A stretch of 64,000 nt of DNA from Candidatus Thiodiazotropha endoloripes (GTDB lineage Bacteria > Pseudomonadota > Gammaproteobacteria > Chromatiales > Chromatiaceae), in contig NZ_LVJW01000003.1 in the NCBI RefSeq assembly GCF_001708965.1, positions 1,178,001-1,242,000 of the forward strand, read 5' to 3'. Shown in pieces: positions 3,831 through 48,402 of the stretch (the stretch's first letter is position 1; every line of letters starts with the position of its first letter). The notes below the pieces were generated by a model. The model ran no database searches and had not been told where the DNA came from. It saw only the letters and a list, made by a program, of their open reading frames with translations. Made by a program: the position numbers and the translations under genes.

Positions 3831-3955
3831 GTGTCGCTTAAATTTTCCGATTCTTTACTGTCCCGCATTATCCACAGCGTTTGTGAAGGTTAATCAAGAT
3901 CCTGTTCTATTTCCCTGAGTATCCAGGGTCTTCAACCAGGGCGGGCGATCAGGCC

Positions 3956-4459
3956 CTAATCAGGCGTCTCATATCGTACATCGGTGATCCAGTATTTGGT
4001 TACCCCGGCCGGTGTCTCCACAACAACCTGATCGTCAAGGATGCGTTTCAAAAGCGCTTGCGCCAGTGGCGAGTCGAGGCTGATATAACTGGGGTGACGA
4101 TCGATTTCGTCTGGCCCGACGATACGATACTCCTGTTCCTCACCATTCTCTGATTCGAGTTGAACCCAGGCGGCAAAGAAGACCTGTTCTGAATTGGCCG
4201 GGGGTTGATTGACAACTTTGAGACTGGGCAGTCGTTTCTGCAGATAGCGGATTCTGCGGTCGATCTCACGAAGCTCTTTCTTACGGTAGATGTACTCTGC
4301 ATTTTCTGACCGGTCACCTTCGGCTGCAGCTGCCGCCAAGGCTTTGGTCACGTCCCGGCGTCGCAGCCACAATCCCTGCTGTTCAGTTTTCAGGCTTTCA
4401 TATCCCTGTCGGGTGATATAGGGTGATTTCGGTGGAGCAGGTGGTCTGTATCTTCCCAT
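3956..4459 (-). CDS. greB: transcription elongation factor GreB
   Basis: The start at 4459 gives MGRYRPPAPPKSPYIT, the usual GreB N-terminus; 21 in-frame upstream residues do not look like the family. The product is 167 residues: an N-terminal coiled coil with the acidic tip (AAAEGDRSENAEYIYRKKE) and a C-terminal FKBP-like domain ending YWITDVRYETPD. GreB inserts its coiled coil into the RNA polymerase secondary channel and stimulates cleavage of backtracked transcripts. The stop codon TAG is the complement of CTA at 3956-3958, inside the sequence AGGCCCTA. This matches the termini of the MITE-like family described at 23476-23743. Confidence 0.93.
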   Translation of the reverse strand: MGRYRPPAPPKSPYITRQGYESLKTEQQGLWLRRRDVTKALAAAAAEGDRSENAEYIYRKKELREIDRRIRYLQKRLPSLKVVNQPPANSEQVFFAAWVQLESENGEEQEYRIVGPDEIDRHPSYISLDSPLAQALLKRILDDQVVVETPAGVTKYWITDVRYETPD

Positions 4460-4541
4460 GGTCTGTTTGACTGAGAGTGTGACTGTTAAGAATTTGTTAC
4501 TGGCCAAAGAATAAGAATCCAATTCTTCAAATTAACTTCAT

Positions 4542-4568
4542 TCAGGGCCTGTTAATACAAAACCAATC
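4542..4568 (+). mobile_element. solitary end of the TAGGGCCTG MITE family
   Basis: AGGGCCTGTTAATAC followed by an ACCAATC segment matches the terminal inverted repeat of the complete element at 23476-23743 with a few changes. No matching right end lies downstream in the next kilobase, so this is a remnant or solo end. It sits upstream of greB and of the protease gene. Confidence 0.45.
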
Positions 4569-4724
4569 ATCCTTACTTGGAATGTTGTTAACAAACACTA
4601 GTATTGCACAATCACCAATTCATGGGATCAAGGTGACATATTCACCATTGAAATGAAGTTTGAATACTCTAAAATCAGCCAGATACAAATCATAACGGAT
4701 TTATATAACAAGGGGACAATTGGC

Positions 4725-7331
4725 GTGGCAAAGATGAAACTCACAGAAAAACTGTCAAAAATATTTCTAACCCTGCTGGTTTCCGGGATCATTGCAGCAT
4801 GCGGTGGTGGTGGCGGTGGTTCGGATGATGACGACGGAGGTGATAGTGGCGATGGTGGTAGTACCAGCGGCAGTATCAGCGGTCTGATATCAGTTCCTGG
4901 CTATGTGGTAACCGACAGTGATGTCAATGATGATCAAACCACGCCCGTCGCCAATCAGCCGGCGAACAATGCACAGTCCGTACCCAACCCTGTCAATATC
5001 GGTGGTTATGTCAATGTGGCCGGGACAGGCGCTGCCGGTAATCTGAGAGCTTCCGGAGATCCGGATGATTACTACCTGGTCAATCTGACATCGGGCCAGA
5101 CCCTGGTGCTGAATATCGGTGATATCGATGTGGGTGGTGTCGACTTGGATCTCTACCTGTTTGATGTGAACGATCTGACCAATCCAGTCGCCAGTTCAAT
5201 CGGTACATCAAAATTCGAAACCATCGTGGTGCCATCCGATGGACAGTACTATGTCATCGTGCACGCCTACAGTGGAGCCTCAAACTATCTCTTGTCCATT
5301 GGTTTGACCTCCTCTTCAATCCTTCCACAAGGCGGCATGAGCATCACCGATGATTTTGTACCCGGTGAGGTACTGGTCAAGTTTGATAGTGCTTCCGCCC
5401 AGGCGAAAGCTCTGGATACCGGCCTCAGCCATTACAGCTTCAGCCAATCCCCGGAGAATGAGATCGGCATTCAGCGACTGACTCTGAATGATCAGTTCGT
5501 CAGTAGTGCGGCTGCCCGTCCTGGCATTTATGCTCAGATGGACAGCGAAGCTCAGCTGAAGCTGGATACCATCATGGCGATCAAAGAGCTCAACCAGCGA
5601 AGCGACGTGGTCTATGCTCAGCCCAACTACATCTATCACGCCTCGGCGACACCGAATGACGAGTATTACAGTCTGCAGTGGCACTACAATCAGATCAATC
5701 TGCCACAGGCCTGGGACATTACCACCGGTGATACCAGCGTCATCGTCTCGGTCATCGATACCGGCGTGTTGTTGAACCATCCTGATTTAAGTCAGCAGCT
5801 GGTGGCCGGTTATGACTTCATTTCCGATGCCGGGAATGCAAACGACGGGGACGGCATCGATGCCAATCCGGACGATGCGGGTGACGAGATCCAGAACGGG
5901 GTGTCCAGTTTTCATGGTACCCACGTAGCCGGAACCGTAGCCGCCAGAAGTAACAACTCCACAGGTGTTGCCGGTGTGGCCTGGAATGTGCGAATCATGC
6001 CGATCCGTGTGCTGGGCAAGCAGGGTGGTTTCAGTAGCGATATCATCGAGGGCATTCTCTTCTCAGCCGGCCTGTCCAATGCATCCGGTACAACACCGAG
6101 CCAAAGAGCGGATGTCATCAACATGAGTCTGGGTGGCGCTTCGCCCGACCAGGCCAGTTTTGATGCGATTACCGCGGCACGCAATGCCGGTGTTATCGTG
6201 ATTGCCGCAGCAGGTAATGAAAACACCTCACAACTCGCCTATCCCGCATCCTACACCGGTGTGGTCTCGGTAAGCTCGGTTGATCAGAGTCGTACCCGGG
6301 CTCCCTATTCGAATTACGGTACTGAGATCGATGTGGCTGCCCCTGGCGGTAACACTCAGGCTGACGTGGATGGTGACGGTAGATCTGACGGTGTGCTCAG
6401 TACCCTGGGTGATGACTCCCAGGGCGGCACCAGCTTCACCTACAACTTCTACCAGGGCACCTCGATGGCGGCACCTCATGTGGCGGGTGTAGCCGCATTG
6501 ATGAAATCTGTCTACGCTGGTCTGACACCGGCCGAGTTCGACAGCATGCTCTCCTCAGGGGAGCTGACGAACGACATCGGCAACAGTGGCCGGGACGACC
6601 TTTACGGACATGGTCTGATCGATGCCTACAAAGCCGTGGTGGCCGCACAACAGCGGGGTGGTGGTAACACACCCACTGATCCCTCATTGAGTGTCAATCC
6701 GCAGAGCCTCAACTTCTCCAATTCACTGCAGTCCACCTCTCTGTTTGTGGAAGAGATTGGCGGTTCTGTCGGTACTGTCCAGATCACTGAAAACATCTCC
6801 TGGTTGTCGGTTGCGGCAAATCAGGTGAATGGTTCGGGTATCGGCAGTTACACCGTCAGTGTCGACCGCAGTGGCCTCTCACCGGCAACCTATACAGGTA
6901 CCATCCAGGTGAGTGCCGGAACCTCCAGCGTCGATGTGAATGTGATCATGCAGGTATTGGATAGTTCGATTTCCGGTGACGCCGGTCGACACTATGTACT
7001 GCTGGTCGACAATGCAACCAGTCAGCCTGTTCAACAGGATGAAGTGAATACCAATACAGGCAGTGGTAGTTACAGTTTCAGTAATGTGAGTTCAGGTGAC
7101 TACTACATTGTTGCCGGATCAGATATGGATATGGATAATCTGATCTGTGATAACGGTGAGTCCTGTGGTGCCTATCCCACTCTCTCCCAACCCAATGTCA
7201 TTACTGTTGGGTCCGGGGCACAAAATGGGCTGGATTTTTCAGCTACCTACGAGTATCAGACACCGACTTCCAACGCTCTGTCTGCGGAAGAGAGTGTTCA
7301 AGAGCTGATGGTTTACCCACGTCAGGACTGA
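4725..7331 (+). CDS. subtilisin-like (S8) protease lipoprotein with PPC and BACON-like domains
   Basis: The GTG at 4725 is preferred over the ATG at 4653 because AGGGGA (4711-4716) is 8 nt upstream. It gives a lipoprotein signal (SGIIAAC) followed by a Gly/Asp-rich linker. In order: a pre-peptidase C-terminal-type beta domain (DPDDYYLVNLTSG), a prodomain-like segment (FVPGEVLVKF), the S8 catalytic domain with D345 (VIDTG), H397 (HGTHVAG) and S580 (GTSMAAPHVAG), a BACON-like Ig domain (LSVNPQSLNFS) and a C-terminal beta domain. All three catalytic residues are present. It is probably an outer-membrane-anchored or surface protease degrading extracellular protein. The stop overlaps the ribosome-binding site of the following PrcB-like gene, so the two form an operon. 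Confidence 0.9.
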   Translation: MAKMKLTEKLSKIFLTLLVSGIIAACGGGGGGSDDDDGGDSGDGGSTSGSISGLISVPGYVVTDSDVNDDQTTPVANQPANNAQSVPNPVNIGGYVNVAGTGAAGNLRASGDPDDYYLVNLTSGQTLVLNIGDIDVGGVDLDLYLFDVNDLTNPVASSIGTSKFETIVVPSDGQYYVIVHAYSGASNYLLSIGLTSSSILPQGGMSITDDFVPGEVLVKFDSASAQAKALDTGLSHYSFSQSPENEIGIQRLTLNDQFVSSAAARPGIYAQMDSEAQLKLDTIMAIKELNQRSDVVYAQPNYIYHASATPNDEYYSLQWHYNQINLPQAWDITTGDTSVIVSVIDTGVLLNHPDLSQQLVAGYDFISDAGNANDGDGIDANPDDAGDEIQNGVSSFHGTHVAGTVAARSNNSTGVAGVAWNVRIMPIRVLGKQGGFSSDIIEGILFSAGLSNASGTTPSQRADVINMSLGGASPDQASFDAITAARNAGVIVIAAAGNENTSQLAYPASYTGVVSVSSVDQSRTRAPYSNYGTEIDVAAPGGNTQADVDGDGRSDGVLSTLGDDSQGGTSFTYNFYQGTSMAAPHVAGVAALMKSVYAGLTPAEFDSMLSSGELTNDIGNSGRDDLYGHGLIDAYKAVVAAQQRGGGNTPTDPSLSVNPQSLNFSNSLQSTSLFVEEIGGSVGTVQITENISWLSVAANQVNGSGIGSYTVSVDRSGLSPATYTGTIQVSAGTSSVDVNVIMQVLDSSISGDAGRHYVLLVDNATSQPVQQDEVNTNTGSGSYSFSNVSSGDYYIVAGSDMDMDNLICDNGESCGAYPTLSQPNVITVGSGAQNGLDFSATYEYQTPTSNALSAEESVQELMVYPRQD

Positions 7332-7343
7332 GAGGGATAAAAA

Positions 7344-7838
7344 ATGAAACGTTTTAACACATTGAAATGGCTGGGGCTGTCAGCCCTTTGTATCACTATG
7401 ACCGCATGCAATACCCAGGATAATTCAGTTTCCGTCGTCAAAGACGGTGTTGTCTGCTCCAATAACCAGGCGGCCGGTATGCAGCTGGTCAAGGAGGGGA
7501 TCATCAAAAACGTCGGCGGCGGCGTGGTGATGAGTGATAAGTCCCTCAAGCCTGGCGAGGAGGGCAAATCTGACGCGGAAGAGAGCTGGCTGGTCCGGGT
7601 CGATATGGGACAGCAGCCTAGTGGTGGTTATGCTTTGAAACTGCTCTCTGACAAGTTGGCGATTGAGGAACAGACGGCAACTTTGGCGCTGCAGTGGAGT
7701 AAGCCGGAGCCTGGCATGGCACAGGTGCAGATGATTACCTTTCCATGTCTCTATCTGAAAGTTGCCAAAGGTGATTACACTCGTCTGGCAGTGGTTGATG
7801 AAGAGGGTAATCTGAAACACAGCCTGGATCTGCCTTAG
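7344..7838 (+). CDS. PrcB-like lipoprotein, partner of the upstream S8 protease
   Basis: 164 residues with a lipobox (SALCITMTAC, mature Cys about 22). The C-terminal half (QQPSGGYALKLLSDKL, then FPCLYLKVAKGDYTRLAVVDEEG) resembles the PrcB C-terminal domain, known from PrcB, the accessory lipoprotein of the spirochaete dentilisin (subtilisin-type) protease complex. The gene starts 12 nt after the protease stop, with AGAGGG at 7331-7336 as its ribosome-binding site, so co-expression is very likely. A role as stabiliser or regulator of the protease follows from the family and the pairing. The assignment rests on pattern recognition, not a search. Confidence 0.7.
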   Translation: MKRFNTLKWLGLSALCITMTACNTQDNSVSVVKDGVVCSNNQAAGMQLVKEGIIKNVGGGVVMSDKSLKPGEEGKSDAEESWLVRVDMGQQPSGGYALKLLSDKLAIEEQTATLALQWSKPEPGMAQVQMITFPCLYLKVAKGDYTRLAVVDEEGNLKHSLDLP

Positions 7839-7892
7839 CGCGATAAACTGAACTTATCAAACAGCCATTGATGCTGACATCAAGCTGACAGC

Positions 7893-7931
7893 TTATCGAC
7901 CCGGTAATCTCACTTTTTACCGGGTCGATAA
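7893..7931 (+). terminator. terminator hairpin after the protease-PrcB operon
   Basis: TTATCGACCCGGTAA (7893-7907) and TTACCGGGTCGATAA (7917-7931) form a perfect 15-bp stem with a 9-nt loop, about 55 nt after the PrcB-like stop. There is no long U-tract, so it may work together with Rho or act bidirectionally. Confidence 0.6.
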
Positions 7932-8139
7932 ATGCTTGGTGGTTTTCACTCCCCGCTACCGATTACTCACACCCCCCTGTGCTTTTCCCGAAGATACCTG
8001 CAGATTATCCGTTTTCAACCGGAAATAAATGGATTGTTTTTCAAGAGTCAGGGCAATCTCAGCCTGGCTTGTAAACTCGCATTGATGAATGCCCTATTGT
8101 GACTCTTGGTCTACTGTCAATAGGAGTACAGAAGCTTTG

Positions 8140-8247
8140 ATGAATTCTCTTTATGATCTCCCAGTTCTGTTGACCAATCCAGCGATGAGAGATGAATGGA
8201 TTGAGATTGTTCGGAGTGACGGATTGATCAAGTCACCTTGTATCTGA
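8140..8247 (+). CDS. possible 35-residue small protein
   Basis: ATG 8140 to TGA 8245-8247 encodes a 35-residue peptide starting MNSLYDLPVLLTNPAM and ending GLIKSPCI. AGGAG at 8122-8126 is rather far upstream (13 nt). I recognise no family. It is the only sizeable frame in this gap and could equally be chance. Confidence 0.2.
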   Translation: MNSLYDLPVLLTNPAMRDEWIEIVRSDGLIKSPCI

Positions 8248-8296
8248 TATCAGGAATAGCTTTTAATAGAGACAGCTGAGCAAAAGGGCATGACAT

Positions 8297-8755
8297 ATGA
8301 GCAGTAACAGCCGTTTTACCATCTCTTCCGTAGAGAGGAGTGACTTTGACAAAATGGTCGATCTGCTGAGACAGCTGTTTTCAATTGAAGCGGATTTCAA
8401 TGTGGATCCGGATAAACAAAGACGGGGTTTGGAACTGCTGCAGGAGTCTGAATCAGCAGAGATCTTTGTTGTCAGAAATGATAATCAGGGGGTTGTCGCG
8501 ATGGCGACCCTGCAGCTGGTCGTATCCACTGCTGAGGGAGGGTTGGTTGCTTGGTTGGAGGATCTCGTAGTCGACACCGACCATCGCGGTCAGGGTATTG
8601 GAGAGTTACTGTTATCCCATATTAACCAGTGGCTGGAGAACCGGGGGGTAAAAAGAGTTCAACTGGTTGCTGACCGGGATAATCGATTAGCCCTCGATTT
8701 CTATAAAAAACAGGGATGGCAGGAGATCAATTTAAATGTACTTCGTCGTAAGTAG
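8297..8755 (+). CDS. GNAT family N-acetyltransferase
   Basis: 152 residues forming a complete GNAT fold. The acetyl-CoA-binding motif A is visible as LEDLVVDTDHRGQGIGELLL (R/Q-x-x-G-x-G/A form), and the C-terminal DRDNRLALDFYKKQGWQ is the typical last helix-strand. It transfers an acetyl group from acetyl-CoA to an amine; the substrate cannot be told from sequence. It stands alone, with GGG about 8 nt before ATG 8297. Confidence 0.85.
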   Translation: MSSNSRFTISSVERSDFDKMVDLLRQLFSIEADFNVDPDKQRRGLELLQESESAEIFVVRNDNQGVVAMATLQLVVSTAEGGLVAWLEDLVVDTDHRGQGIGELLLSHINQWLENRGVKRVQLVADRDNRLALDFYKKQGWQEINLNVLRRK

Positions 8756-8963
8756 CGGTTCGACTATTAACCCGGCAATACAATAATTCACTTTTCATCA
8801 CCGGGTTAGCAGTTGCGTAAAGTGTGTGAGTTTAGGATAATTGCAGGACAAGGAAGCACTGTGTTTGTTGGGCTCAGGGAGCTCCTATCAATACCCGAAA
8901 ATTGATTGGCTCCTGACCGTTTCGATGCAGATTACAAAGGATTTTAGGTAGACGGGTAAAACT

Positions 8964-9365
8964 ATGCTATCGAAGAACGCTATTGCGGGCTTGGATGCCC
9001 CCCATCCAGCTGCACTGTGGGTTGAGAATGTCTCACTCGACCCGCTGCAGATCGATTGTGTCACAGCGCAGATGCTGGCAATTCTTGATAATCACAGCAA
9101 GTTGGGATTGGAAGAGCAGATTACGCTGATTGCGATTTACGGTGTGGTCAAGGATCGCCCAGGTTTGATTTTCGATCAGGTTGTGCACAACCTCATAGAC
9201 AAAGCCAGAACGCAAAGTGATGCCAGAATCATGCAGGAACTGCATGATCTGAGATTAACCGCTGAGCAACGTATACCCAAACAGATCATGAGACATTTCA
9301 AACTGTTTCTAGCTGAATCACTGAACGGATTTGATAATTCTCTCGACGCTAGAAGTCTCATTTAA
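8964..9365 (+). CDS. hypothetical protein, 133 aa
   Basis: I do not recognise this family. The product is a soluble, probably all-helical protein of 133 residues with no signal peptide, membrane segment or cysteine cluster. Features are a helix-like LGLEEQITLIAIYGVVKDRP and an amphipathic KARTQSDARIMQELHDLRL. Codon use looks like its neighbours. It stands alone between the acetyltransferase and a gap of about 350 bp; there is no strong ribosome-binding site before ATG 8964. Confidence 0.55.
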   Translation: MLSKNAIAGLDAPHPAALWVENVSLDPLQIDCVTAQMLAILDNHSKLGLEEQITLIAIYGVVKDRPGLIFDQVVHNLIDKARTQSDARIMQELHDLRLTAEQRIPKQIMRHFKLFLAESLNGFDNSLDARSLI

Positions 9366-9718
9366 GACACCCGAGAATAACTGCTCCTGATGTCCTGTGC
9401 GCTTACGGCTGTAGCGGGATCACACCTTATCGCTTGTTGAGGTCAGTCTGCTAATGGCCTCAAAGAGAGGCCGATCACCGCAAACACTCGCCAAAGGCAA
9501 ACGGGAATATGGGGAAAACTCTTGACCATCCTGGCATCTGTCAGGAGCCGGGAACTTCCAACAGATGAAGGTCATACCTGCCAGTATTGAAATCACAACC
9601 TAACTGAAGATTTTGGATCCAAATTGTGAGTTTCAGAACTGGCGATTCTGGTGGTATGGGATTATCTATACGCCCCCTGCCGTAGCAGGGGGGTGTCAGC
9701 TCTACAGATTGTCTGAGA
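9366..9718. other. 353-bp gap with two small hairpins
   Basis: GGCCTC-AAAGA-GAGGCC at 9456-9472 is a 6-bp hairpin about 90 nt after the orphan gene. The stronger hairpin at 9673-9692 is listed separately. No gene is visible. Confidence 0.45.
9673..9692 (-). terminator. hairpin after the DUF1521 gene
   Basis: CCCCCTGC (9673-9680) pairs with GCAGGGGG (9685-9692) around a CGTA tetraloop: a very GC-rich 8-bp stem 26 nt past the stop of the minus-strand gene. Only a weakly AU-rich stretch follows on that strand. Confidence 0.5.
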
Positions 9719-10678
9719 TCAGCGATCCCAGTTCCAATTCATGAGACCTGTGTTCAGGAACAGCCCCAGGGCACGGCCGAACTCCTGGCTGAACTCATAG
9801 GGTTTCTCTGCACCCGGTTTGGTGATATTGAAATCCTCTTGAGTGGCCATCTCGCCGGTTTCTGGATTGATCCAACCTTCTCCGTCGGCATTTTCCTGAA
9901 CCACAAAACCATCCGTGACCAACAGATCCATCAACTGCCCACCCCGGTCACTCTGGTGAATCTGCATATCACCCTTTTCATTCTGACTCAGGCCGGTTAC
10001 CTGGATCACTTTGTCGCCTTTGGTGATAGTAATGTCATTGGCAACAAACATGTCGTTGTTTTTGAATTTCTCTGTGTCGATGGTGATCTTGGTGCCATCT
10101 TCCAGTTGAAAGGTGGTTTTTTCCCAGAAATTCACGTCGGTTTTGCCGTCACCATTCCAATCCACATGGGGATCACCCCAAATGTTGGTCTCTTCCCCGG
10201 TCTCTTTGTTGCGAACGACGATCTGTGATTTGTTCTCATTCAGGACCAGCTCATATTTGTCGCCAAGGCCGATGGTCGCCTTACCGTCACACGGCTGAGT
10301 CACAGTCCATTCCTGGTCGCTTGGACATGTCTCAGGAGGGCATGGCTCAGGAGGACATGGCTCAGGACCAGGCTCTGGAGGAGCCGGTTCAGGCGGACAG
10401 GGAGTCGGCGGTGTGGGTCCTGGAGGACAAGGTATGAAAGGGGGAGGTATGGGTGGTCCAGGCATTGGTGGAAAAGGCAGCTCTCCTCCGGACGGACAGG
10501 GTGGCTTTGGTCCTGGCATGCAAGCCGGCAGTTGCGGCATATGGGGCTTGGGCAAGGGGGTTCTGCCGCAACGTATTTTGAATAGTGAGGGCAGTGAGAA
10601 GTTCATCGAGCCCTGCTTGTCCGATAGTGCGCTTAACCCGGCGCTTGCGAGTCCATTCATCGGGGGTAAAGACGACAT
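9719..10678 (-). CDS. proline-rich protein with DUF1521 (metal-inducible self-cleavage) domain
   Basis: 319 residues in two parts. Residues 40-120 are a Pro/Cys-rich region with PEPCP repeats. Residues ~125-315 match DUF1521, marked by IWGDPHVDWNGDGKTDVNFW around 166-185. DUF1521 of the rhizobial type III effector NopE1 cleaves itself in the presence of calcium between Asp and Pro in GDPHVD; the same hexapeptide is present here at 168-173, so cleavage is predicted after D169. The Asp-rich NGDGKTD just behind is a plausible calcium loop. There is no Sec signal peptide, as for NopE1, but no type III secretion genes are in the window. A divergent gene for another unusual Cys-containing protein follows 192 bp away. 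Confidence 0.8.
   Translation of the reverse strand: MSSLPPMNGLASAGLSALSDKQGSMNFSLPSLFKIRCGRTPLPKPHMPQLPACMPGPKPPCPSGGELPFPPMPGPPIPPPFIPCPPGPTPPTPCPPEPAPPEPGPEPCPPEPCPPETCPSDQEWTVTQPCDGKATIGLGDKYELVLNENKSQIVVRNKETGEETNIWGDPHVDWNGDGKTDVNFWEKTTFQLEDGTKITIDTEKFKNNDMFVANDITITKGDKVIQVTGLSQNEKGDMQIHQSDRGGQLMDLLVTDGFVVQENADGEGWINPETGEMATQEDFNITKPGAEKPYEFSQEFGRALGLFLNTGLMNWNWDR
10326..10370 (-). repeat. three tandem 15-bp units in the DUF1521 gene
   Basis: Units at 10326-10340, 10341-10355 and 10356-10370 share the core CTCAGGA and differ at a few bases. They encode the repeated Pro-Glu-Pro/Thr-Cys-Pro pentapeptides of the proline-rich region, so length variation between strains is likely. Confidence 0.7.
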
Positions 10679-10757
10679 GCTGACACTCCTTTGTAATTGA
10701 TATTTAAAACTCCAAACTCATTATTCATCCGAAGCCAATCTCAACAAGCTGGGAATG

Positions 10758-10782
10758 TCCCTAGTACGCGTTATCCCTAGTA
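10758..10782. repeat. 9-bp direct repeats in the divergent promoter region
   Basis: TCCCTAGTA occurs at 10758-10766 and 10774-10782, a 16-bp period, between the divergent genes at 9719-10678 and 10871-11446. This could be a pair of regulator half-sites; no regulator is known. Confidence 0.35.
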
Positions 10783-10870
10783 GCGAAATCGCAATGCAAG
10801 TGTTAGTTTTTTGATTAACAGAGATTTTGAGTACAGTCGGTATTCATAAATCAGGGAAAGGTAAACGGTT

Positions 10871-11446
10871 ATGACTGAAGGTATATCAGGTGCTTCCGGT
10901 GGCGTCGGTCAGTCAGGCGATGGAAACAGTCGTGGCGCAGAGCCGTCCCAATCTACCCAAGCGCTGGATGGTATGACGACCGAAGATCGTTTGAAATCCA
11001 CCCCTACCGAATTGGATCGCGCACTCGGGCAGCCTTCAGACACTATGGCGGCGGCGGAGGAAGTGAGTAACTCTGTTAAACACTCTCCGAAGCAGGACAA
11101 TGTACAGATCTGTTGCCGTCCCGCTCAGATTGCCATGGGCCTTGTGGAACACTGTTGGGTGCGGACAGATACCAGGGATGTGGGACTTGGTGGAAATCCC
11201 GATGCACTGCCCGGTGAAGTCTATGAGAGTCCCTACGCTACCGAAACCTATGTGATCGACCACTCCCAGGATATGCCAGAGTATTGTATGGCAATGAATA
11301 ATGTCGATGAATCCTGTGTGAATGGAATTCTTGATAATGAGCTCAACCAATCCCAAGGCGGTTTCGGCTTACACAATAATTGTCAGAGTTATGCCTACAG
11401 TGTGGTCAACCGTTGTAGGACCGGTCCTCAAATACCGATGAAGTAA
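10871..11446 (+). CDS. hypothetical protein with His...NC motif (possible NlpC/LRAT-like fold)
   Basis: 191 residues, no signal peptide. The first ~75 residues are Gly/Ser/Thr-rich and probably disordered. The remainder is a compact Cys-rich domain with EHCWVRTD (H94) and, near the end, LHNNCQSYAYSVVNRC (C171). A His followed much later by N-C at the head of a helix resembles the permuted NlpC/P60 (LRAT-type) papain-like fold; this is a weak fold guess, not a family match. It is divergent from the DUF1521 gene and followed after 7 nt by a two-helix membrane protein, which would suit an effector with a cognate membrane partner. GGGAAAGG lies upstream of ATG 10871. Confidence 0.5.
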   Translation: MTEGISGASGGVGQSGDGNSRGAEPSQSTQALDGMTTEDRLKSTPTELDRALGQPSDTMAAAEEVSNSVKHSPKQDNVQICCRPAQIAMGLVEHCWVRTDTRDVGLGGNPDALPGEVYESPYATETYVIDHSQDMPEYCMAMNNVDESCVNGILDNELNQSQGGFGLHNNCQSYAYSVVNRCRTGPQIPMK

Positions 11447-11453
11447 CAGCCGA

Positions 11454-23475: not shown

Positions 23476-23743
23476 TAGGGCCTGTTAACACCAATCCAAT
23501 ACGCCCTGCTGGGTCTGTTTTGTGTCCAGCAAGGCAGAATGAGCGTAGTGTAGTTATTCTACATGAGCGAATGATAACGCCGCTGGGTGCAAAAACAGTC
23601 CCAGCACTTCGGGTTGCTCTTGAAAAAGCGCCACTCGGCGTTGCTCGTCGCTCATTTGGAACAACCAAACTACGCTCCTCGCGCCTTGATTGGCGCTTTT
23701 TCAGGCGCAACAGGGTGCATTGGATTAGTGTTAACAGGCCCTA
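23476..23743. mobile_element. complete MITE-like element with TAGGGCCTG terminal repeats
   Basis: The left end TAGGGCCTGTTAACAC followed by CAATCCAAT and the right end, its complement ATTGGATT followed by AGTGTTAACAGGCCCTA, differ at one position in about 25 bp. The ends fit insertion at TA (TA-GGGCC...GGCCC-TA). The ~268-bp interior has no credible gene. It carries a second inverted repeat, TGAAAAAGCGCC (23621-23632) with GGCGCTTTTTCA (23692-23703), and GCGCC-TTGATT-GGCGC followed by five T, a likely bidirectional terminator. The right end supplies the TAG stop of the symporter-kinase gene. Confidence 0.8.
23681..23701 (+). terminator. intrinsic terminator inside the MITE
   Basis: GCGCC (23681-23685), loop TTGATT, GGCGC (23692-23696), then TTTTT. 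Together with the A-run at 23622-23627 it can also form on the minus strand, so it probably insulates the symporter-kinase gene from the regulator gene downstream. Confidence 0.55.
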
Positions 23744-32133: not shown

Positions 32134-32510
32134 TCAGAGGAGTCAGATCCTTCAACCTTGATTCTATTCAGGTTTAATCAAGCCAAACCGTGCTGCGTAG
32201 CTTTGGTCATGCTTCTTGACTAGAATCATGGCTAGGGCCAGTTGATACGAATCCAATCAGCCCTTGGAGTTGTGCCAGAAATTGCACTGCTCGCCGTCCT
32301 TTTCACATAACCAAACTTCTAACCTCGCGCATTGACATGCGCATTTTCGGAGGCAGCAGGGTCGATTGGATTCGTTAAAACAGGCCCATACAGGCTTGTT
32401 CAAACAATTAATAACCTGATCAGGGGAGTATTTGTACTTCCGGCACACCATGTGCAGGGTGACCTATATATCTGAACAACGATAATCACAAAATTTGAGG
32501 AGACAGACTT
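32134..32510. other. 377-bp gap between motY-like gene and phbB, holding a MITE
   Basis: Apart from the MITE at 32233-32390 it contains the phbB leader with GAGGAG at about 32498-32503. No gene is visible. Confidence 0.5.
32233..32390. mobile_element. short diverged copy of the TAGGGCCTG MITE
   Basis: Left end TAGGGCCAGTTGATAC, then GAATCCAAT; right end ATTGGATTCGTT, then AAAACAGGCCCATA. The ends match those of the element at 23476-23743 with several changes, and this copy is shorter (158 bp). Inside, GCGCAT-TGAC-ATGCGC followed by ATTTT parallels the terminator of the longer copy. No coding capacity. Confidence 0.7.
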
Positions 32511-40544: not shown

Positions 40545-40562
40545 CCCTCCCGTCAGGGAGGG
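40545..40562 (+). promoter_or_regulatory. hairpin that hides the ribosome-binding site of the HEAT gene
   Basis: CCCTCCC (40545-40551), loop GTCA, GGGAGGG (40556-40562). The right arm is also the Shine-Dalgarno sequence of the GTG start at 40572. It could be a terminator of the upstream gene or a translational switch for the downstream one. Confidence 0.5.
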
Positions 40563-40571
40563 TGTTACTAG

Positions 40572-41351: not shown

Positions 41352-41426
41352 AGGCGTCTACAGAAAAACACACGACTGGCCTGATGTTGTATCGGTGAGA
41401 CAGGCTGAATTCACCTTGGAAATAGT

Positions 41427-41502
41427 TGGTGGGCACAACAGGGATCGAACCTGTGACCTCTGCAATGTGACTGCAGCGCTCTCCCAGCTGAGCTATGCGC
41501 CC
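41427..41502 (-). tRNA. tRNA-Val(CAC)
   Basis: On the minus strand, GGGCGCA/TGTGCCC acceptor arms, D-arm GCTC/GAGC, anticodon stem CTGCA/TGCAG with loop GTCACAT (anticodon CAC) and T-arm ACAGG-TTCGATC-CCTGT. The CCA end is encoded. 76 nt. Confidence 0.95.
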
Positions 41503-41515
41503 GAAGTGGAAACGC

Positions 41516-41544
41516 ATTCTAGATCTACAGCCACTTTACGTCAA
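41516..41544 (-). promoter_or_regulatory. sigma-70 promoter of tRNA-Val
   Basis: On the minus strand, TTGACG (41544-41539), a 17-bp spacer, TAGAAT (41521-41516), and 13 nt to the mature 5' end of the tRNA. Confidence 0.75.
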
Positions 41545-41652
41545 TTGTCCAAAAATTATACAAAATCAGCATTCTCCACTGATTAAGCTTACGATTCACT
41601 CCTGGTCTGTTAGAATTTCCGATTTGCTGCAACTGGATGAATTCACCGGATC

Positions 41653-43065
41653 ATGACTGTTCGTACTCGATTTGCCCCCAGCCCAACCGGCTATCTTCAT
41701 GTGGGCGGTGCCCGCACCGCACTGTTTTCCTGGCTCTATGCGCGTAAGCATGGGGGGAAATTCGTCCTGCGTATCGAGGACACGGACCTTGAGCGTTCCA
41801 CCGCTGAGTCGGTGAATGCCATTCTGGAAGGGATGACCTGGCTGGGGCTGGAGTATGACGAAGGCCCTTTTTATCAGACCAAACGGTTCGATCGCTATCA
41901 TGAGGTGATTGAAGAGCTGCTGTCGAAGGGGCTGGCCTATCGCTGTAACTGCAGCCGTGAGCGGCTTGATGACCTGCGGGAAGCGGCGATGAATCGTAAA
42001 GAGAAGCCCAGATACGATGGCCATTGCCGCAACCATGATGTCAGTCCCGATGAGCCCCACGTAATCCGCTTTCGCAATCCGGATAGTGGTGTGGTGCTGG
42101 TCGATGACCTGATCCGCGGTCGGGTCAGTTTCAACAATGAGGAGCTGGACGATCTCATCATCCGTCGTACCGACGGTTCCCCTACCTACAATCTGACGGT
42201 GGTGGTGGATGATCTCGATATGCAGATCAGCCATGTGATCCGCGGTGACGACCACCTGAACAATACCCCCAGACAGATCAATATCCTCAAGGCGCTCAAC
42301 GCTGAGCCTCCGAAATATGGGCATGTACCGATGATATTGGGGGATGATGGCGCACGGCTCTCGAAACGTCATGGCGCGGTCAGCGTGATGCAGTATCGGG
42401 AGGATGGCTACCTGCCTGAGGCACTGCTCAACTATCTGGTGCGCCTTGGGTGGTCCCATGGGGATCAGGAGATCTTTTCCATCGATGAGATGATAGAGTT
42501 GTTTGATATCGATGGGGTCAACAAGGCGGCATCCAGTTTCAATACCGATAAGTTGCTGTGGTTGAATCAGCACTACATCAAGCAGGATGATGCGAAGCGC
42601 ATCGCCCATCTGCTGAGTCCCCATATGGGGGATCTGGGCATCGATCCCGCTCAGGGTCCTGACCTGACAAAGGTCGCAGAGGCGCACCAGGAGCGGGCAC
42701 GGACCCTGGTAGAGATGGCGGAAATGAGTGCCTTCTGCTATCAGGATTACGATGAGTTCGAAGAGAAGGCCGCCAAGAAACATCTGAGAGGTGTGGCCAG
42801 AGAGCCTCTGCAACGGATGCGCGATGCCCTGTCCGAATTGGAAGATTGGCAGGAAGAGGCCCTGCATGGGATCGTGGAGCAGGTCTCAGAGGCGCTGGAA
42901 CTGAAGATGGGGAAGGTTGCCCAGCCACTCAGGGTGGCGGTGGTAGGCCGGGCAGCATCGCCAGGCATCGACACAACCCTCTACCTGGTTGGCCAAGAGG
43001 CCTGTCTGAGACGCATCGATAAAGCTCTCGACTATATTACCCAGCGTGAAGCGGCTGCAGGCTAG
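41653..43065 (+). CDS. gltX: glutamate-tRNA ligase
   Basis: 470 residues, the usual bacterial GluRS length. The class I motifs are [18 protein letters not shown] (HIGH-type, 7-24) and LSKRH (236-240, KMSKS-type). The anticodon-binding domain fills the C-terminal part. It charges tRNA-Glu. It lies directly before glnS on the same strand (58 bp to the glnS ATG), an adjacency of two paralogous synthetases. No cysteine cluster typical of the zinc-binding form was noted beyond the CNCSRERL segment. Confidence 0.96.
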
Positions 43066-43123
43066 GCAAAGGCGCCACCAAAGCTGAATTTTGAAGAGAA
43101 AACACTTTCAAGAAGCCAGAGTA

Positions 43124-44827
43124 ATGAGCGAATTGGATCAGAGCGACAACACACCGACGAACTTCATTCGACAGATCATCGACCAGGATATCGAGCAGGG
43201 CAAGCACGATGGTCGGGTACACACCCGTTTTCCACCGGAGCCCAACGGTTATCTGCACATCGGTCATGCCAAGTCGATTGTGCTTAATTTCGGCATTGCC
43301 AGGGATTACGAGGGGCTTTGCAATCTGCGCTTCGATGATACCAATCCGCACAAGGAGAATATGGAGTTTGTCGAAAGCATTCAGCAGGATGTCCGCTGGC
43401 TGGGATACGACTGGCAGGAGCGTCTCTTCTATGCCTCAGACTATTTTCAACAACTCTACGATTTCGCGGTGGAGCTGATCAAAGCTGGCAAGGCCTATGT
43501 CTGTGATCTGGACGGGGAGCAGATGCGTGCCTACCGGGGAACACTGAAGGAACCAGGCCAGGAGAGTCCCTATCGCAGTCGCTCCGTGGAGGAGAACCTG
43601 GATCTGTTTGCGCGTATGAAAGCCGGTGATTTTGCTGATGGAGAGCGGGTGCTCCGGGCCAAGATCGACATGGCTTCGCCGAATATGAATATGCGGGATC
43701 CGACCCTTTACCGGATCCGCCACGGGGTGATTCATCACCAGACAGGCGAAGCCTGGTGTATCTATCCCATGTATGACTACACCCATCCGGTTTCAGATGC
43801 CCTCGAGGGGATTACCCACTCCCTTTGTACCCTGGAGTTTGAGGATCATCGTCCCCTTTATGACTGGGTCCTGGATAACATCACCATCCCATCTCATCCC
43901 CAGCAGATCGAGTTCTCACGACTCAATCTTGAATACACGGTATTGAGTAAGCGTAAGCTGACTCAGCTGGTGGACGAGGGCTTTGTGGAGGGCTGGGATG
44001 ACCCACGCATGCCGACAATCGCCGGGATGAAGCGCCGGGGGTACAGCGCGGCCTCGATCCGCGAGTTCTGTCGACGCATTGGCATCACCAAATCCGACGG
44101 TCTGGTCGAGATTGGCATGCTGGAGACCTGCATCCGTGAGGATCTGGATGCCCGAGCGCCCAGGCGTATGGCCGTGATGCATCCACTGAAACTGGTGATC
44201 GAGAACTATCCGGACGATCAGCAGGAGATGCTGGAAGCCGCCAACCATCCCAAGGATGAGTCGATGGGGGTTCGTCAGATCCCCTTCAGTCGGGAGATCA
44301 TCATCGATCAGGCCGATTTCCGTGAACAGGCGAACAAGAAGTTCAAGCGTCTGGTAACCGGCGGCGAGGTGCGATTGAGAAATGCCTATGTGATCAAATG
44401 CGAAGAGGTGGTGAAAAACAATCAGGGTGACATTGTTGAGATTCGCTGTAGCTATGACCCTGATACTCTTGGGAAAAATCCCGAAGGGCGTAAGGTTCGC
44501 GGGGTTATACACTGGGTCTCTGCCAAACATGGCGTGAAGGGTGAGGTTCGACTCTATGACCGACTCTTCAAGCAGGCGAATGCCGATAAGGTTGAAGAGG
44601 GTGGTCGCTTTACCGATAACCTGAATCCCGATTCATTGCGCACCCTGACAGAGTGCTATTTCGAGCCTGCACTGGTCGATGCAGAGGTCGAACAGGCCTA
44701 TCAGTTTGAGCGGGAAGGCTATTTCATACTCGACAGTGTTGAAGCGGGTCGCCAGCCGATGGTCTTCAATCGGGTGATCACCCTGCGGGATTCCTGGGCA
44801 AAAATTGAAAAAGGCGGCGGTAAATAA
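43124..44827 (+). CDS. glnS: glutamine-tRNA ligase
   Basis: 567 residues from ATG 43124 ([20 protein letters not shown], the standard GlnRS N-terminus); an in-frame TTG 33 nt upstream is unlikely. Class I motifs: [14 protein letters not shown] (H45) and VLSKRK (about 274-279). The beta-barrel anticodon-binding domain follows ([16 protein letters not shown] ... [19 protein letters not shown]). Its presence with a complete GluRS means the transamidation route is not needed for Gln-tRNA. Confidence 0.97.
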
Positions 44828-45006
44828 TCGCCTGACCAGATTGCTCACAGTTATGGTTTCAGGCAGGTTCTGAGCGAGATAGGGTTGGTAGAGAGATTTT
44901 GCCCCGTACTAAGGTTGATCACAGCTTGAGAAGCGGCAGAAACCCTTGTCGGTTGATTGACAGGGATTTGCATTGAAATATCCGCTGAAGATGTGAAAAA
45001 AATCAG

Positions 45007-45035
45007 TGGACAAGCGGGAGATAATCCCCTAATAT
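45007..45035 (+). promoter_or_regulatory. sigma-70 promoter of tRNA-Ala
   Basis: TGGACA (45007-45012), exactly 17 bp, TAATAT (45030-45035), then a GC-rich discriminator GCCCGGC before the tRNA at 45048. A GC-rich discriminator is typical of stringently controlled stable RNA promoters. Confidence 0.75.
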
Positions 45036-45047
45036 GCCCGGCTTTCC

Positions 45048-45123
45048 GGGGCCATAGCTCAGCTGGGAGAGCGCAACACTGGCAGTGTTGAGGTCGGCGG
45101 TTCGATCCCGCCTGGCTCCACCA
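45048..45123 (+). tRNA. tRNA-Ala(GGC)
   Basis: Acceptor arms GGGGCCA/TGGCTCC, D-arm GCTC/GAGC, anticodon stem CAACA/TGTTG with loop CTGGCAG (anticodon GGC), T-arm GGCGG-TTCGATC-CCGCC and encoded CCA. 76 nt. Confidence 0.95.
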
Positions 45124-45222
45124 AATTTGATTAAGATTGGCCCGGATTCATTCCGGGCTATCTTTTTCAGGGTTATGCTGGCCTCCCAAGGTCATCTCTC
45201 GATTGCCCGACGGGGTAGCGGT

Positions 45223-45711
45223 ATGCTCTGGATCGACATTCTGATTATCGCCATCATTGCACTCTCGGCTATCATCAGCCTAATCAGAGGTTTTGTGCAG
45301 GAGGCGTTGTCTCTCGCCACCTGGATCGCCGCATTCACAATCGCCTGGCTATTCTTTCGTCCTCTCGCCGTGGAACTGACTCCCTGGATCGATGTGCCCT
45401 CGATACGGCTTGGTGTGGCTTTTGGGCTTATTCTGATCGGTATTCTGATCCTCGGTGCGATTATCAACCACTTCATGAAGGTGCTGGTCGCCTCAACCGG
45501 GTTGAGTGGCACAGATCGGATGATCGGTATTTTTTTCGGAGTGGCCCGTGGTGCGGTCATGGTGGCAATTCTGGTCCTGTTGGCCGGTCTGACACCGTTT
45601 CCGAATGATCCATGGTGGAGTGAATCCCGCCTGATTCCCTATTTTCAGGATATGGCGCTCTGGTTGAAAGGCTTTCTGCCCAGCGACATTGCTGATAACT
45701 TCCACTATTGA
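45223..45711 (+). CDS. cvpA: colicin V production protein CvpA
   Basis: 162 residues from ATG 45223 (MLWIDILIIAIIALSAIISL); upstream in-frame codons run into the tRNA and are rejected. Four membrane helices and the family signature SLIRGFVQEALSLATWIAAF identify CvpA. The protein supports envelope integrity and, in the original host, colicin V export. As usual it precedes purF (108 bp gap). Confidence 0.93.
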   Translation: MLWIDILIIAIIALSAIISLIRGFVQEALSLATWIAAFTIAWLFFRPLAVELTPWIDVPSIRLGVAFGLILIGILILGAIINHFMKVLVASTGLSGTDRMIGIFFGVARGAVMVAILVLLAGLTPFPNDPWWSESRLIPYFQDMALWLKGFLPSDIADNFHY

Positions 45712-45819
45712 GTGACAGGGATTGGTCGAAATGAATAGTTTGGGAATTTGCGCAGGCCAAGGACTCAATAAACTGTCCCGGCCATCGCTGGCTCCCATGC
45801 AGACCCTGGAGAACTGAAT

Positions 45820-47334
45820 ATGTGCGGTATCGTGGGTATTGTCGGTAAGACACCGGTCAATCAATCCCTTTATGATGCATTATTGGTGCTACAACATAGA
45901 GGTCAGGATGCTGCAGGTATCGTGACCTGCCATAAGGGCAAGCTCTATTTGCGCAAGGCAAACGGATTGGCCCGTGATGTGTTTCATACCCGTCATATGC
46001 TGCGGCTGAAAGGCAATATGGGACTTGGGCATGCCCGATACCCCACCGCCGGATGTGCCTCCTCAGCAGAAGCTCAGCCCTTCTACGTCAATTCACCCTA
46101 TGGGATTACCCTGGCACACAACGGCAATCTCACCAATGCCAAGGAGTTGACAAGGGATCTGTTCGTCGAGGATCTGCGTCATATCAATACCTCGTCAGAT
46201 TCCGAGATCCTGCTCAACATCTTCGCTCATGAACTGCAGATGCAGAATAAACTGCGGATTGCGCCTGAAGACATTTTCAAAGCGGTTGCCGGAGTGCATC
46301 GCCGCTGTCGGGGTGGATATGCAGCGGTTGCGATGATTCCCGGTGTCGGCTTGATCGGCTTTCGCGATCCCTACGCAATACGTCCGATTGTCTATGGCAA
46401 GCGGGAAACGGATCAGGGTACGGAGTACATGATCGCTTCTGAAAGTGTTGCCCTGGATGCCTTGGGTTTCGAACGGGTACGGGATCTGGAACCGGGCGAA
46501 GCGATCTTCATCAGCAAGGGGGGGCAGTTCTACGCCCAGCAGTGCGCTGCCAATACGGTGAAATCCCCCTGCATCTTTGAGTTCGTCTACTTTGCCCGTC
46601 CCGATTCCATAATCGACAATGTGTTTGTACACAAAGCCCGTTCCAGAATGGGCAAAAAACTGGCCAAGAAAATACTCAGGGAGTGGCCGGATCACGATGT
46701 GGATGTGGTGATACCAATTCCGGATACCAGCCGAACGGCCGCATTGACCCTGGCCAATGAGTTGAAGGTGCGCTATACGGAGGGTTTCATCAAAAACCGC
46801 TATATCGGCCGTACCTTTATCATGCCTGGGCAGACTGTGCGTAAAAAGTCGGTCAGACAGAAACTTAATGCCATCGATCTGGAATTCAAAGGCAAGAATG
46901 TTCTGCTGGTGGATGATTCCGTGGTGCGTGGCACCACATCTCAACAGATTGTGCAGATGGCAAGGGACGCCGGGGCCAAAAAGGTCTATTTTGCCTCTGC
47001 CGCACCACCGGTGATCTACCCCAATGTGTATGGCATCGATATGCCCTCTGCAAGTGAACTGGTAGCACACAACCGTACCATTGAGGAGGTGGAGGGGCTC
47101 ATTGGGGCTGATCGCATGATCTATCAGGATCTACAGGATCTGATCGATGCGGTGATGAAGAAAGGCAAAACCGATATCGATCGATTTGATACGTCGGTAT
47201 TCAATGGTGACTATGTCACCGGGGATGTGAGTGACACCTATCTGGAGCAGCTGGAACTGTTGCGTAACGATGGGGCCAAATCCCAGAGTGAGATGGCGGA
47301 CAAAAGTGTCATCGATCTTCACAACGATAGCTGA
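45820..47334 (+). CDS. purF: amidophosphoribosyltransferase
   Basis: 504 residues. Begins MCGIVGIVG, so Cys2 is the glutaminase nucleophile after Met removal. The glutaminase domain covers the first ~230 residues ([22 protein letters not shown]). The phosphoribosyltransferase domain follows, with the PRPP loop [19 protein letters not shown]. It makes phosphoribosylamine from PRPP and glutamine, the first step of purine synthesis. Confidence 0.97.
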
Positions 47335-47357
47335 GTAGTGATCAAAGTATCTGTGCC

Positions 47358-47396
47358 CCCCAGCAGGGCGTATTGGATTCGTGTGGACAGGCCCTA
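47358..47396 (-). mobile_element. solitary MITE end at the TauD stop codon
   Basis: Read on the minus strand, TAGGGCCTGTCCACAC, then GAATCCAATACGCCCTGCTG, matches the left end of the element at 23476-23743 over about 36 bp with three changes. The first three bases are the stop codon of the TauD-like gene. Confidence 0.65.
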
Positions 47397-48323
47397 GCCG
47401 GTACCCGCGTTCCGTTGCGCGCTATTACTCAACCTGGGTTCACAGCCATGGAGTCGGTCGAAATAGCGTGCCCGGTAGATCAGTCGGGGAGTCTCCCCAT
47501 CCTCGAAACCGCTTCTGGTATGTAGCACGTTATTACAGATCAATCCCTGACCCGCCATCAGTTTTCCCCTGAAGTGCCACTCCGACGGAGTGTGCAGGAT
47601 CGATTTCAGGAAACTGACCGCTTCACTCAAACAGGCATCCTCACGCCAGGCGATACTGCGACTTCGATCCGTATAACGCATGTGCAGATGACCATCGGGA
47701 TAGATGGCGAAGACAGGGCCGCTTCGGGCTGGCCTGATCTCTTCGCCATCAACCACATTGGCTGGTATCGTCATCGCCTGCGGATGCATCAATGCCCGGA
47801 TGTAGTCCGGGTTTTCATCCATGATACGAATGAACACGATCTCATGGTCCAGCAGGTCGTTCTCTCCACCCGTTGCGGCAGGATTTACACAATGCAGCAG
47901 CAGTCCGTGGATCTGGTGTTGCAGATCGTTGTAGTAGCCATCAGTGTGCCAGGCGATGGGGCGATCGGAATAAGGGATATAGCCTCTATGCAGGGCATCA
48001 GACTGCACTGTCAATGAGGTGATGGCGTCATTGTCGGCACACATATTGTGATCCAATCGCTGCAGGCCGAATCGACTCCCCAGCTGCCGAATGATCTGTT
48101 TGTCTGCATCATGACCGGAAAGCCCTGCCCAGATTGCCATGTTCGACTTGCGGCAAAGCTGCTGGATTCTGTCATGCTCCGCCTGTGTGAGGTTGCGGGG
48201 GTCACCGATCTCCACGATCAGCGCTTCCAGCGAGCTCGGGTAGTGCCTCAGTTTTGCATCCCGCCAGGCTGCATAGCTATCTGAATTATCAGGATTAAAG
48301 GGTGATAATGCTTGGCTTGGCAT
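47394..48323 (-). CDS. TauD/TfdA-family Fe(II)/2-oxoglutarate dioxygenase
   Basis: 309 residues. The facial triad is visible: IAWHTDGYYND supplies the H-x-D pair and NVLHTRSGFED the distal His; an Arg for 2-oxoglutarate follows (LIYRARYF). The family hydroxylates or cleaves small molecules such as taurine or carnitine-like compounds; substrate not evident here. It is a lone minus-strand gene. Its TAG stop is the first triplet of a MITE end (47396-47394), so the last residues (NAGTG) may be non-ancestral. Confidence 0.85.
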   Translation of the reverse strand: MPSQALSPFNPDNSDSYAAWRDAKLRHYPSSLEALIVEIGDPRNLTQAEHDRIQQLCRKSNMAIWAGLSGHDADKQIIRQLGSRFGLQRLDHNMCADNDAITSLTVQSDALHRGYIPYSDRPIAWHTDGYYNDLQHQIHGLLLHCVNPAATGGENDLLDHEIVFIRIMDENPDYIRALMHPQAMTIPANVVDGEEIRPARSGPVFAIYPDGHLHMRYTDRSRSIAWREDACLSEAVSFLKSILHTPSEWHFRGKLMAGQGLICNNVLHTRSGFEDGETPRLIYRARYFDRLHGCEPRLSNSAQRNAGTG

Positions 48324-48370
48324 GGTCTGGATTTTCGCACATTCAATGAAGTACTGATATGATACTGCGG

Positions 48371-48402
48371 TTAGCCCAGGCCTGCTAACATTAATCCCAT
48401 TG
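48371..48402 (+). mobile_element. diverged solitary MITE end
   Basis: TTAGCCCAGGCCTGCTAACA, then TTAATCCCATTGG, shows partial similarity to the TAGGGCCTGTTAACAC, CCAATCCAAT end. It lies between the divergent TauD-like and ubiT genes. Confidence 0.4.

What the first reader, a model, noticed from the sequence alone, without database searches (positions are those of the whole stretch)
3949..48402. MITE-like family whose end supplies the TAG stop codon of three genes
Ends of the type TAGGGCCTGTTAACAC occur at about six places: 3949-3958, 4542-4568, 23476-23743 (complete), 32233-32390 (complete, short), 47358-47396 and 48371-48402. On the minus strand greB (stop 3958-3956), the symporter-kinase (23743-23741) and the TauD-like gene (47396-47394) each end exactly with the TAG of TAGGGCCTG. 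The TA-GGGCC...GGCCC-TA ends suggest insertion at TA. If it inserts into the TA of a TAA or TAG stop, the stop is regenerated and the element brings a terminator along (GCGCC-TTGATT-GGCGC-T5 at 23681). Stop-codon targeting would be a harmless niche for an element. The greB case rests on about 10 bp only.
Basis: partly seen in the sequence, partly recalled or inferred. Interest (0 to 1): 0.72.

Follow-up and report, generated by a model that had tools for sequence, protein, structure and literature searches.

The report
Collapsed MITE scars marking replication direction
A small hairpin-forming mobile DNA element sits hundreds of times in the genomes of clam-symbiont bacteria, sometimes exactly in the stop codon of a gene, and many copies seem to have shrunk to a 33-base scar whose direction shows which way the DNA is copied there.

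Summary
The repeats are real: the 16-base end occurs 6 times in the window (0.26 expected) and 281 times in the genome (reversed-pattern control 27). The family is a TA-inserting MITE, about 268 bp, nearly one long palindrome, found across Candidatus Thiodiazotropha. An ~810-bp two-ORF IS5-family (IS427-like) element with the same ends exists in a relative and is the likely kind of parent.

The stop-codon claim is partly right. In the 37% of the genome examined, 10 of 66 non-coding TA ends coincide with a called gene's stop (1.2-2.6 expected). At two sites with an empty ortholog, a TAA stop became TAG at the same codon. CTAG/YTAR targeting plus tolerated insertion is enough to explain this; greB is doubtful.

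New here: a 33-bp scar, one arm end fused to the far terminus, is a common short form. Of 61 non-redundant scars, 56 have the retained arm on the strand opposite the G-rich leading strand (p = 6e-12), whatever the neighbouring gene direction; near-full copies show no consistent bias (31 of 54). Best explanation: collapse of the palindrome by slippage during lagging-strand synthesis. A rival, fork-oriented insertion of already-short elements, is not excluded.

The parts
23476..23743 (.). complete 268-bp MITE copy, near-palindrome, TA...TA
   Evidence: TIRs exact; DNA fold -75.2 kcal/mol, z -10.4; RNA-parameter fold z -13.7; near-complete copy at the same site in G002, its left terminus damaged
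23741..23743 (-). TAG stop codon of the 982-aa histidine kinase, supplied by TA + first G of the element
   Evidence: ORF end, HisKA/HATPase_c
32233..32391 (.). degenerate two-ended copy of about 158 bp
   Evidence: left end 3 mismatches; orthologous degenerate copy in G002 C24 about 61.8-62.0 kb
47359..47396 (-). one-ended remnant (left arm about 38 bp)
   Evidence: 2 mismatches to the end; empty site with TAA in G002
47394..47396 (-). TAG stop of the TauD-like gene; TAA at the same codon in G002
4543..4568 (+). one-ended remnant, conserved in G002
3949..3958 (-). greB stop plus TAGGGCCTGAT: weak, possibly an old decayed end
   Evidence: conserved as TAGGRCCTGAT in G002, G009, G021; more end-like only in G002
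48371..48402 (+). old degenerate scar-like sequence with counterparts in G002, G021 and G011
   Evidence: flank of the TauD loci L171, L172, L173, L175; not counted in the statistics (more than 3 mismatches)

Best explanation
This is a non-autonomous, IS5-type (IS427-like) MITE of the clam symbiont genus Candidatus Thiodiazotropha. Step 1 (shown): it inserts at the TA of CTAG/YTAR sites and duplicates TA. Because it begins with G, a gene whose TAA/TAG stop is hit keeps a stop (TAG) at the same codon; such insertions are tolerated, hence the excess at stops. [quoted passage not shown] The polymerase copies the outer ~33 bases of the first arm it meets, reaches an internal GGGCC-type repeat, and its nascent end slips to the matching repeat at the far base of the hairpin, which has just lost its pairing partner. 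The interior is skipped and a 33-bp scar, one arm end plus the far terminal CCCTA, is left. As the first-met arm depends on fork direction, the scar's orientation records replication direction. Shown: polarity, lack of consistent polarity in near-full copies, two hybrid junctions, direct repeats. Inferred: slippage itself; no site was caught as full copy in one genome and 33-bp scar in another.
For: Scars: 56 of 61 non-redundant on the strand opposite the leading strand, p = 5.6e-12; where both neighbouring genes lie on the lagging strand, 14 of 14 follow replication, not gene direction. By set, before removing 5 duplicates: G000 16 of 20, G002 7 of 7, G005 7 of 7, G008 8 of 8, named loci 23 of 24 (locus skews). 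In none of the 61 does an arm continue beyond base 33. Near-full copies: 31 of 54, p = 0.34. The direction is the one the slippage model gives by my own derivation. Two scars checked with their flanks end ACGCCCTA (G000 C3:1873170; G011 C193:16487 in L205), joining the dinucleotide of the commonest intact arm (ACGCCCTG, 12 of 31 arms) to the outer TA. The other expected product, the 22-bp TAGGGCCTGTTAACAGGCCCTA from the TGTTAACA direct repeat, the longest that the script reported in 25 of 25 full copies, is also present. Two-ended copies form a size series of 22, 63, 64, 98, 162, 194, 219, 268 and 287 bp. One site is near-full in G010 and a different remnant in G000 (L206 versus G000 C3:1815608). 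Slippage at a hairpin with short direct repeats is described in vitro for archaeal polymerases (PMC4134008, abstract and passages).
Against: No orthologous site was found as full copy versus 33-bp scar; scar sites compare to empty TA sites instead, as for a directly inserted short element. The longest direct repeat, TGTTAACA, should favour 22-bp scars, yet these are rare. Intact copies with the GGCCCT repeat survive in G009 and G005, so the repeat does not doom a copy quickly. 5 of 61 scars go against the polarity. Of 9 near-full copies with at least 7 kb for the skew, 8 lie in the other direction, a hint that full copies may have their own bias. With free switch points the positions alone in two single-contig genomes are not significant (G008 8 of 8, 2313 of 20000 shuffles; G005 19 of 23, 269 of 3000 shuffles). 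Of seven hybrid-looking 33-mers, one (G009 C26:3595) continues as an arm and is no scar; four could not be checked. The window's own remnants at 4543 and 48371 run against the polarity.
Confidence: 0.64

Rival explanations
1. The 33-bp form is itself the mobile unit: transposase supplied in trans inserts it directly at YTAR sites with a preferred orientation because insertion is coupled to the replication fork (for example through the beta clamp), as known for Tn7, IS200/IS605 and several IS families.
For: Scars sit at precise TA sites that are empty in relatives (521286 and 563381; L309 and L305). Fork-linked insertion orientation is known for several transposons (PMC5371812, passages). In G000 and G002 together 15 of 27 scars carry AGGCCCTA, while ACGCCCTG is the commonest intact arm (12 of 31) and only 1 of 31 arms was seen with AGGCCCTG in the lists shown, as if scars came from a separate subfamily.
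Against: The right end has only 7-8 bases of the terminal repeat. Near-full copies show no consistent orientation (31 of 54). Two checked hybrid ACGCCCTA ends break even that short repeat. 20 of 20 scars in the G000 sample are distinct sequences.
Confidence: 0.24
2. The element actively targets stop codons, and its end is adapted to supply TAG plus a terminator.
For: 10 of 66 (G000) and 6 of 35 (G002) non-coding TA ends are at stops, p = 2e-4 and 7e-4 against YTAR sites. The IS copy in L099 also ends a glyoxalase-like gene.
Against: The target preference is YTAR (24 of 27 scars). 56 of 66 ends are not at stops. An insertion within the 3' part of a gene also creates an apparent stop, so the count is an upper bound. 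The terminator faces the wrong way at the kinase.
Confidence: 0.06
3. Polarity arises after the event by selection, scars in the wrong orientation being removed because of transcription or replication conflicts.
For: Genes on the leading strand predominate in the sampled regions, so strand-linked selection is conceivable.
Against: Polarity is independent of neighbouring gene direction (14 of 14 with both genes lagging). A 33-bp scar with a stem of at most 11 pairs has little obvious cost. Near-full copies are not consistently polarised.
Confidence: 0.04

Closest known systems
IS5 family, IS427 group, and MITEs derived from it
   Same: The L099 element is about 810 bp, with two overlapping ORFs matching the IS5 profile NF033580 and Pfam PF13340 and PF01609, and a 2-bp TA duplication. 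IS427-group elements in Paracoccus are listed at 832-865 bp with mostly 2-bp repeats, some with overlapping ORFs (PMC3281130, passages).
   Different: The MITE is almost entirely one palindrome rather than a deleted transposase gene with two short ends, and many of its copies are collapsed.
IS870 (recalled, not read)
   Same: Recalled: requires CTAG and obtains its transposase stop codon from the target. The L099 transposase ORF also ends at the TAG formed with the target TA.
   Different: Here host genes also regain a stop. The search did not list the IS870 paper.
REP/REPIN elements of Pseudomonas
   Same: Many short intergenic inverted repeats with singlets regarded as remnants of a paired mobile unit; deletion between the two arms is named as one route (PMC3116915, passages).
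   Different: TA target and an IS5-type DDE partner rather than a RAYT; the passages that I saw describe no replication polarity of singlets.
Palindrome deletion by slippage on the lagging strand (Trinh and Sinden; Weston-Hafer and Berg; Leach: recalled, not read)
   Same: Short direct repeats, hairpin, strand preference.
   Different: Laboratory plasmids and phages; here a natural, repeated record in many species.
Fork-oriented transposons (Tn7 TnsE, IS200/IS605, beta-clamp-binding IS)
   Same: Orientation correlates with replication (PMC5371812, passages).
   Different: Here near-full copies are not consistently oriented; the collapsed forms are.

Membership tests
MITE | terminal inverted repeats and target duplication, no coding gene | tested here: met
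   exact 16-bp TIRs; TA duplication against empty sites; the one ORF of 120 aa or more across the window copy (138 aa, + strand) is judged spurious
MITE | mobilised by a related autonomous element | tested here: inconclusive
   L099 (G165, same family) carries the same ends around an IS5 transposase; no match to its first ORF in G000, and only partial or distant matches in 2 of 22 genus genomes; activity not testable
IS5 family, IS427 group (partner element L099) | DDE transposase of the IS5 family | tested here: met
   NF033580 E 8e-30 and 3e-28 for the two ORFs, 104.2 and 99.3 bits, each below the whole-protein cutoff of 110; I put this down to the split gene; PF01609, PF13340 above cutoff
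IS5 family, IS427 group (partner element L099) | about 0.8-0.9 kb, 2-bp duplication, overlapping ORFs | tested here: met
   812 bp TA to TA, ORFs overlap at 1646-1676, C-TA...TA-G flanks; frameshift itself not tested
REP/REPIN with RAYT | Y1 transposase (RAYT), no target duplication (definition recalled) | tested here: not met
   TA is duplicated at insertion; RAYT genes not searched
IS200/IS605-type ssDNA element | hairpin ends, no target duplication (recalled), lagging-strand insertion | tested here: not met
   TA duplication; near-full copies not consistently polarised
Lagging-strand palindrome collapse | product polarity follows replication direction | tested here: met
   56 of 61
Lagging-strand palindrome collapse | full-length precursor seen at the same site | tested here: not met
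   none for 33-bp scars in the sequences held; one other remnant has a near-full ortholog

The most novel reading that the evidence does not exclude
The 33-bp form is itself a transposing unit, inserted at TA with its orientation set by the replication fork. It would then be among the smallest mobile DNA elements, moving with one good terminal repeat and one of 7-8 bases, and would double as a marker of replication direction in uncultured genomes.
Probability: 0.22. Interest if true: 0.8.

Novelty: new variant of a known kind. Interest (0 to 1): 0.6.

Why it matters
If the collapse reading holds, these symbiont genomes hold a natural, repeated record of how bacterial replication removes long palindromes: dozens of scars of one form, 56 of 61 with the predicted polarity. 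That makes a mechanism known from engineered plasmids (recalled) testable by comparative genomics, explains why one-ended fragments outnumber complete copies in the sampled genome, and gives a sequence marker of replication direction. The stop-codon cases show a simple way for an insertion to be neutral: TA + G always restores a stop.

Tried and rejected
Strand bias read from the place list was dropped: that list is truncated per strand. The main counts use complete stretches, the loci that searches returned, and the 24 loci. Functional-RNA reading: no Rfam match at gathering threshold besides two tRNAs. Terminator function: no more than a consensus match, on the wrong strand for the kinase. 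Bias caused by gene direction: rejected by the context table. Switch points fitted to positions alone in two single-contig genomes: not significant (in one search I had picked 22 G005 sites by eye and missed one, mended). Search for a full copy versus a 33-bp scar at one site: none. My first 'mini33' class included some intact arms ending GGCCCTG and was replaced by the stricter definition (33-mer within 4 mismatches, last base A, no second end within 420 bp; 1 two-ended case excluded in G002). The 4-mismatch limit admits doubtful members: two of the four G000 exceptions (866361, 1862184) look poorly formed; I left them in. On re-checking, the hybrid-junction evidence shrank from seven 33-mers to two checked with flanks, with four unchecked and one refuted; I lowered the main odds from 0.66 to 0.64 and raised the rival accordingly.

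Paper searches listed no report of MITE remnants polarised by replication; several listings were off topic, and many subscription papers are not held. DasGupta/Weston-Hafer/Berg 1987 and Trinh/Sinden 1993 were not held.

Full report
Check of the observation. The 16-base end TAGGGCCTGTTAACAC (up to 3 mismatches) occurs 6 times in the window against 0.26 expected, and 281 times in the 4.46-Mb genome against 27 for the reversed control pattern. The exact 16-mer is in 22 of 22 genomes of the genus and in 41 of 194 of the family sample. The copy at 23476-23743 is complete (268 bp) and folds nearly end to end: DNA parameters -75.2 kcal/mol against a shuffle mean of -37.4, z -10.4; RNA parameters z -13.7.

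Where it lives. An exact scan for the 33-base form (T at base 17) among named species genomes hit 24 stretches: 22 from Candidatus Thiodiazotropha (endoloripes, taylori, endolucinida, others) or gammaproteobacterial symbionts of the clams Ctena and Stewartia, one Sedimenticola and one Chromatiales MAG. The unnamed close relative G002 has contigs of 1221007 and 1203156 bases, the lengths of two T. endoloripes G_E contigs, so I take it to be that genome.

The element and its parent. In G165, a family member, the same two ends stand 812 bp apart around two overlapping minus-strand ORFs. Both match IS5-family profiles: NF033580 for both, PF13340 and PF01609 for one each. The flanks are C-TA ... 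TA-G. The transposase ORF stops at the TAG made by the target TA, and the neighbouring glyoxalase-like gene (my reading of its sequence) also stops at the TAG at the other side. G000 itself has no match to the first ORF, and 2 of 22 genus genomes have partial or distant ones, so the current source of transposase is unknown.

Insertion site. Empty orthologous sites show TA duplication. G002 full copy at C7:794737 against TTTAGG in G000; G010, G021 and G009 copies against CTAG sites in G000 (L201, L202/L209); scars in G000, T. endoloripes and the Stewartia symbiont against CTAA, TTAG, CTAA and TTAA sites. Of 27 scars in the G000 and G002 samples, 24 have Y before and R after the TA.

Stop codons. 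In the 1.66 Mb of G000 that I examined (window plus 80 stretches, 37% of the genome) there are 100 ends; 72 begin with TA, 66 of these outside called coding sequence, and 10 coincide with the stop of a called gene on the same strand. Expected: 1.2 if all non-coding TA are equal, 2.6 for YTAR only. G002: 6 of 35. Two of the G002 sites are orthologs of G000 sites, so the 16 are 14 sites. Genes were called by my own codon-usage script, and an insertion inside the 3' part of a gene would also create an apparent stop, so these are upper bounds. Two sites have an informative empty ortholog: TauD (TAA in G002, TAG in G000; the last residues before the stop differ but the stop is at the same place) and a 161-aa gene (TAA in G000, TAG in G002, last 15 residues alike). 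The other 12 were not resolved. The kinase copy is present in both genomes, so no empty site is known there. greB is doubtful.

Remnants. Most ends do not belong to complete copies. By my first classification the G000 sample has 10 ends in two-ended copies, 25 in the 33-base-like class and 65 one-ended, the last class including chance matches. The 33-base form is TAGGGCCTGTTAACACNAATCCAATNGGCCCTA: one arm end joined to the far GGCCCTA. With the stricter definition there are 20 in the G000 sample, 7 in G002, 7 and 8 in the G005 and G008 loci, and 24 in the named loci; 66 in all, 61 after removing duplicates. In none of the 61 does the arm go on after base 33.

Polarity. Taking the strand with more G than C as the leading strand (up to 20 kb either side, 3-8 kb in all for short loci), 56 of 61 scars have the retained arm's 16-mer on the other strand (p = 5.6e-12). 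Exceptions: four in G000, one in L308. When both neighbouring genes are on the lagging strand 14 of 14 scars still follow replication; both leading 15 of 18; mixed 26 of 28; 1 of unknown context also follows. The bias was first noticed in G000, so the other sets are the cleaner tests (G002 7 of 7, G005 7 of 7, G008 8 of 8, named 23 of 24; these share 5 duplicates). The broader one-ended class is weaker: 41 of 65 in G000 and 21 of 28 in G002. Near-full copies, oriented by their interior, are 31 of 54 (p = 0.34), though the 9 with a long skew window are 1 of 9, which I cannot explain. Positions alone in G005 and G008 do not give significance when the two switch points are left free.

Mechanism. 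In a fork moving left to right the top strand is the lagging template; its polymerase meets the right arm first. Copying the outer 33 bases of that arm frees the left terminus from its partner, and the nascent end, now a copy of the internal GGGCC repeat, can pair there. The product keeps the right arm, a minus-oriented scar. That is what is seen where the top strand is leading by skew. This step is my inference from the slippage model; slippage at a hairpin with short direct repeats is described in vitro for archaeal polymerases in a paper of which I saw abstract and passages (PMC4134008). Two scars checked with their flanks end ACGCCCTA (G000 C3:1873170; G011 C193:16487), what joining an ACGCCCTG arm to the outer TA would give; of five more such 33-mers one is an intact arm and four are unchecked. 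The 22-base palindrome fits deletion between the two TGTTAACA copies, the longest direct repeat reported in 25 of 25 full copies, but is rarer than repeat length alone would predict.

What remains open. No site was caught as full copy in one genome and 33-base scar in another among the sequences held. A rival in which the 33-base form is inserted directly with fork-linked orientation is therefore alive; such orientation is known for other transposons (PMC5371812, passages). I give collapse 0.64 and that rival 0.24.

Novelty. MITEs of IS5 type, TA targets, stop codons supplied by a target (IS870, recalled) and lagging-strand palindrome deletion (recalled) are each known. The listings of my searches showed no report of MITE scars polarised by replication; the library is incomplete. 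I class it as a new variant of a known kind.

Noticed in passing
L099:1278-2090: The IS5-type element in G165 obtains the stop codon of its own transposase from the target TA and also sits exactly at the stop codon of a glyoxalase-like gene.
   Followed up: partly
G177 and G009 contigs (lists): A number of draft contigs begin about 60-170 bases before an inward end, suggesting that assemblies break at this hairpin repeat.
   Followed up: no
window 48371-48402: A scar-like sequence beside the TauD gene has counterparts at the same place in G002, G021 and G011, in the orientation against the polarity.
   Followed up: partly
G000 and G002 two-ended copies versus scars: ACGCCCTG is the commonest internal repeat of two-ended arms (12 of 31), AGGCCCTA that of scars (15 of 27): survivors may lack the better direct repeat, or two subfamilies exist.
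   Followed up: partly
near-full copies with at least 7 kb of flank: 8 of 9 are oriented opposite to the scars, five of them in G002 C7; small sample, unexplained.
   Followed up: no
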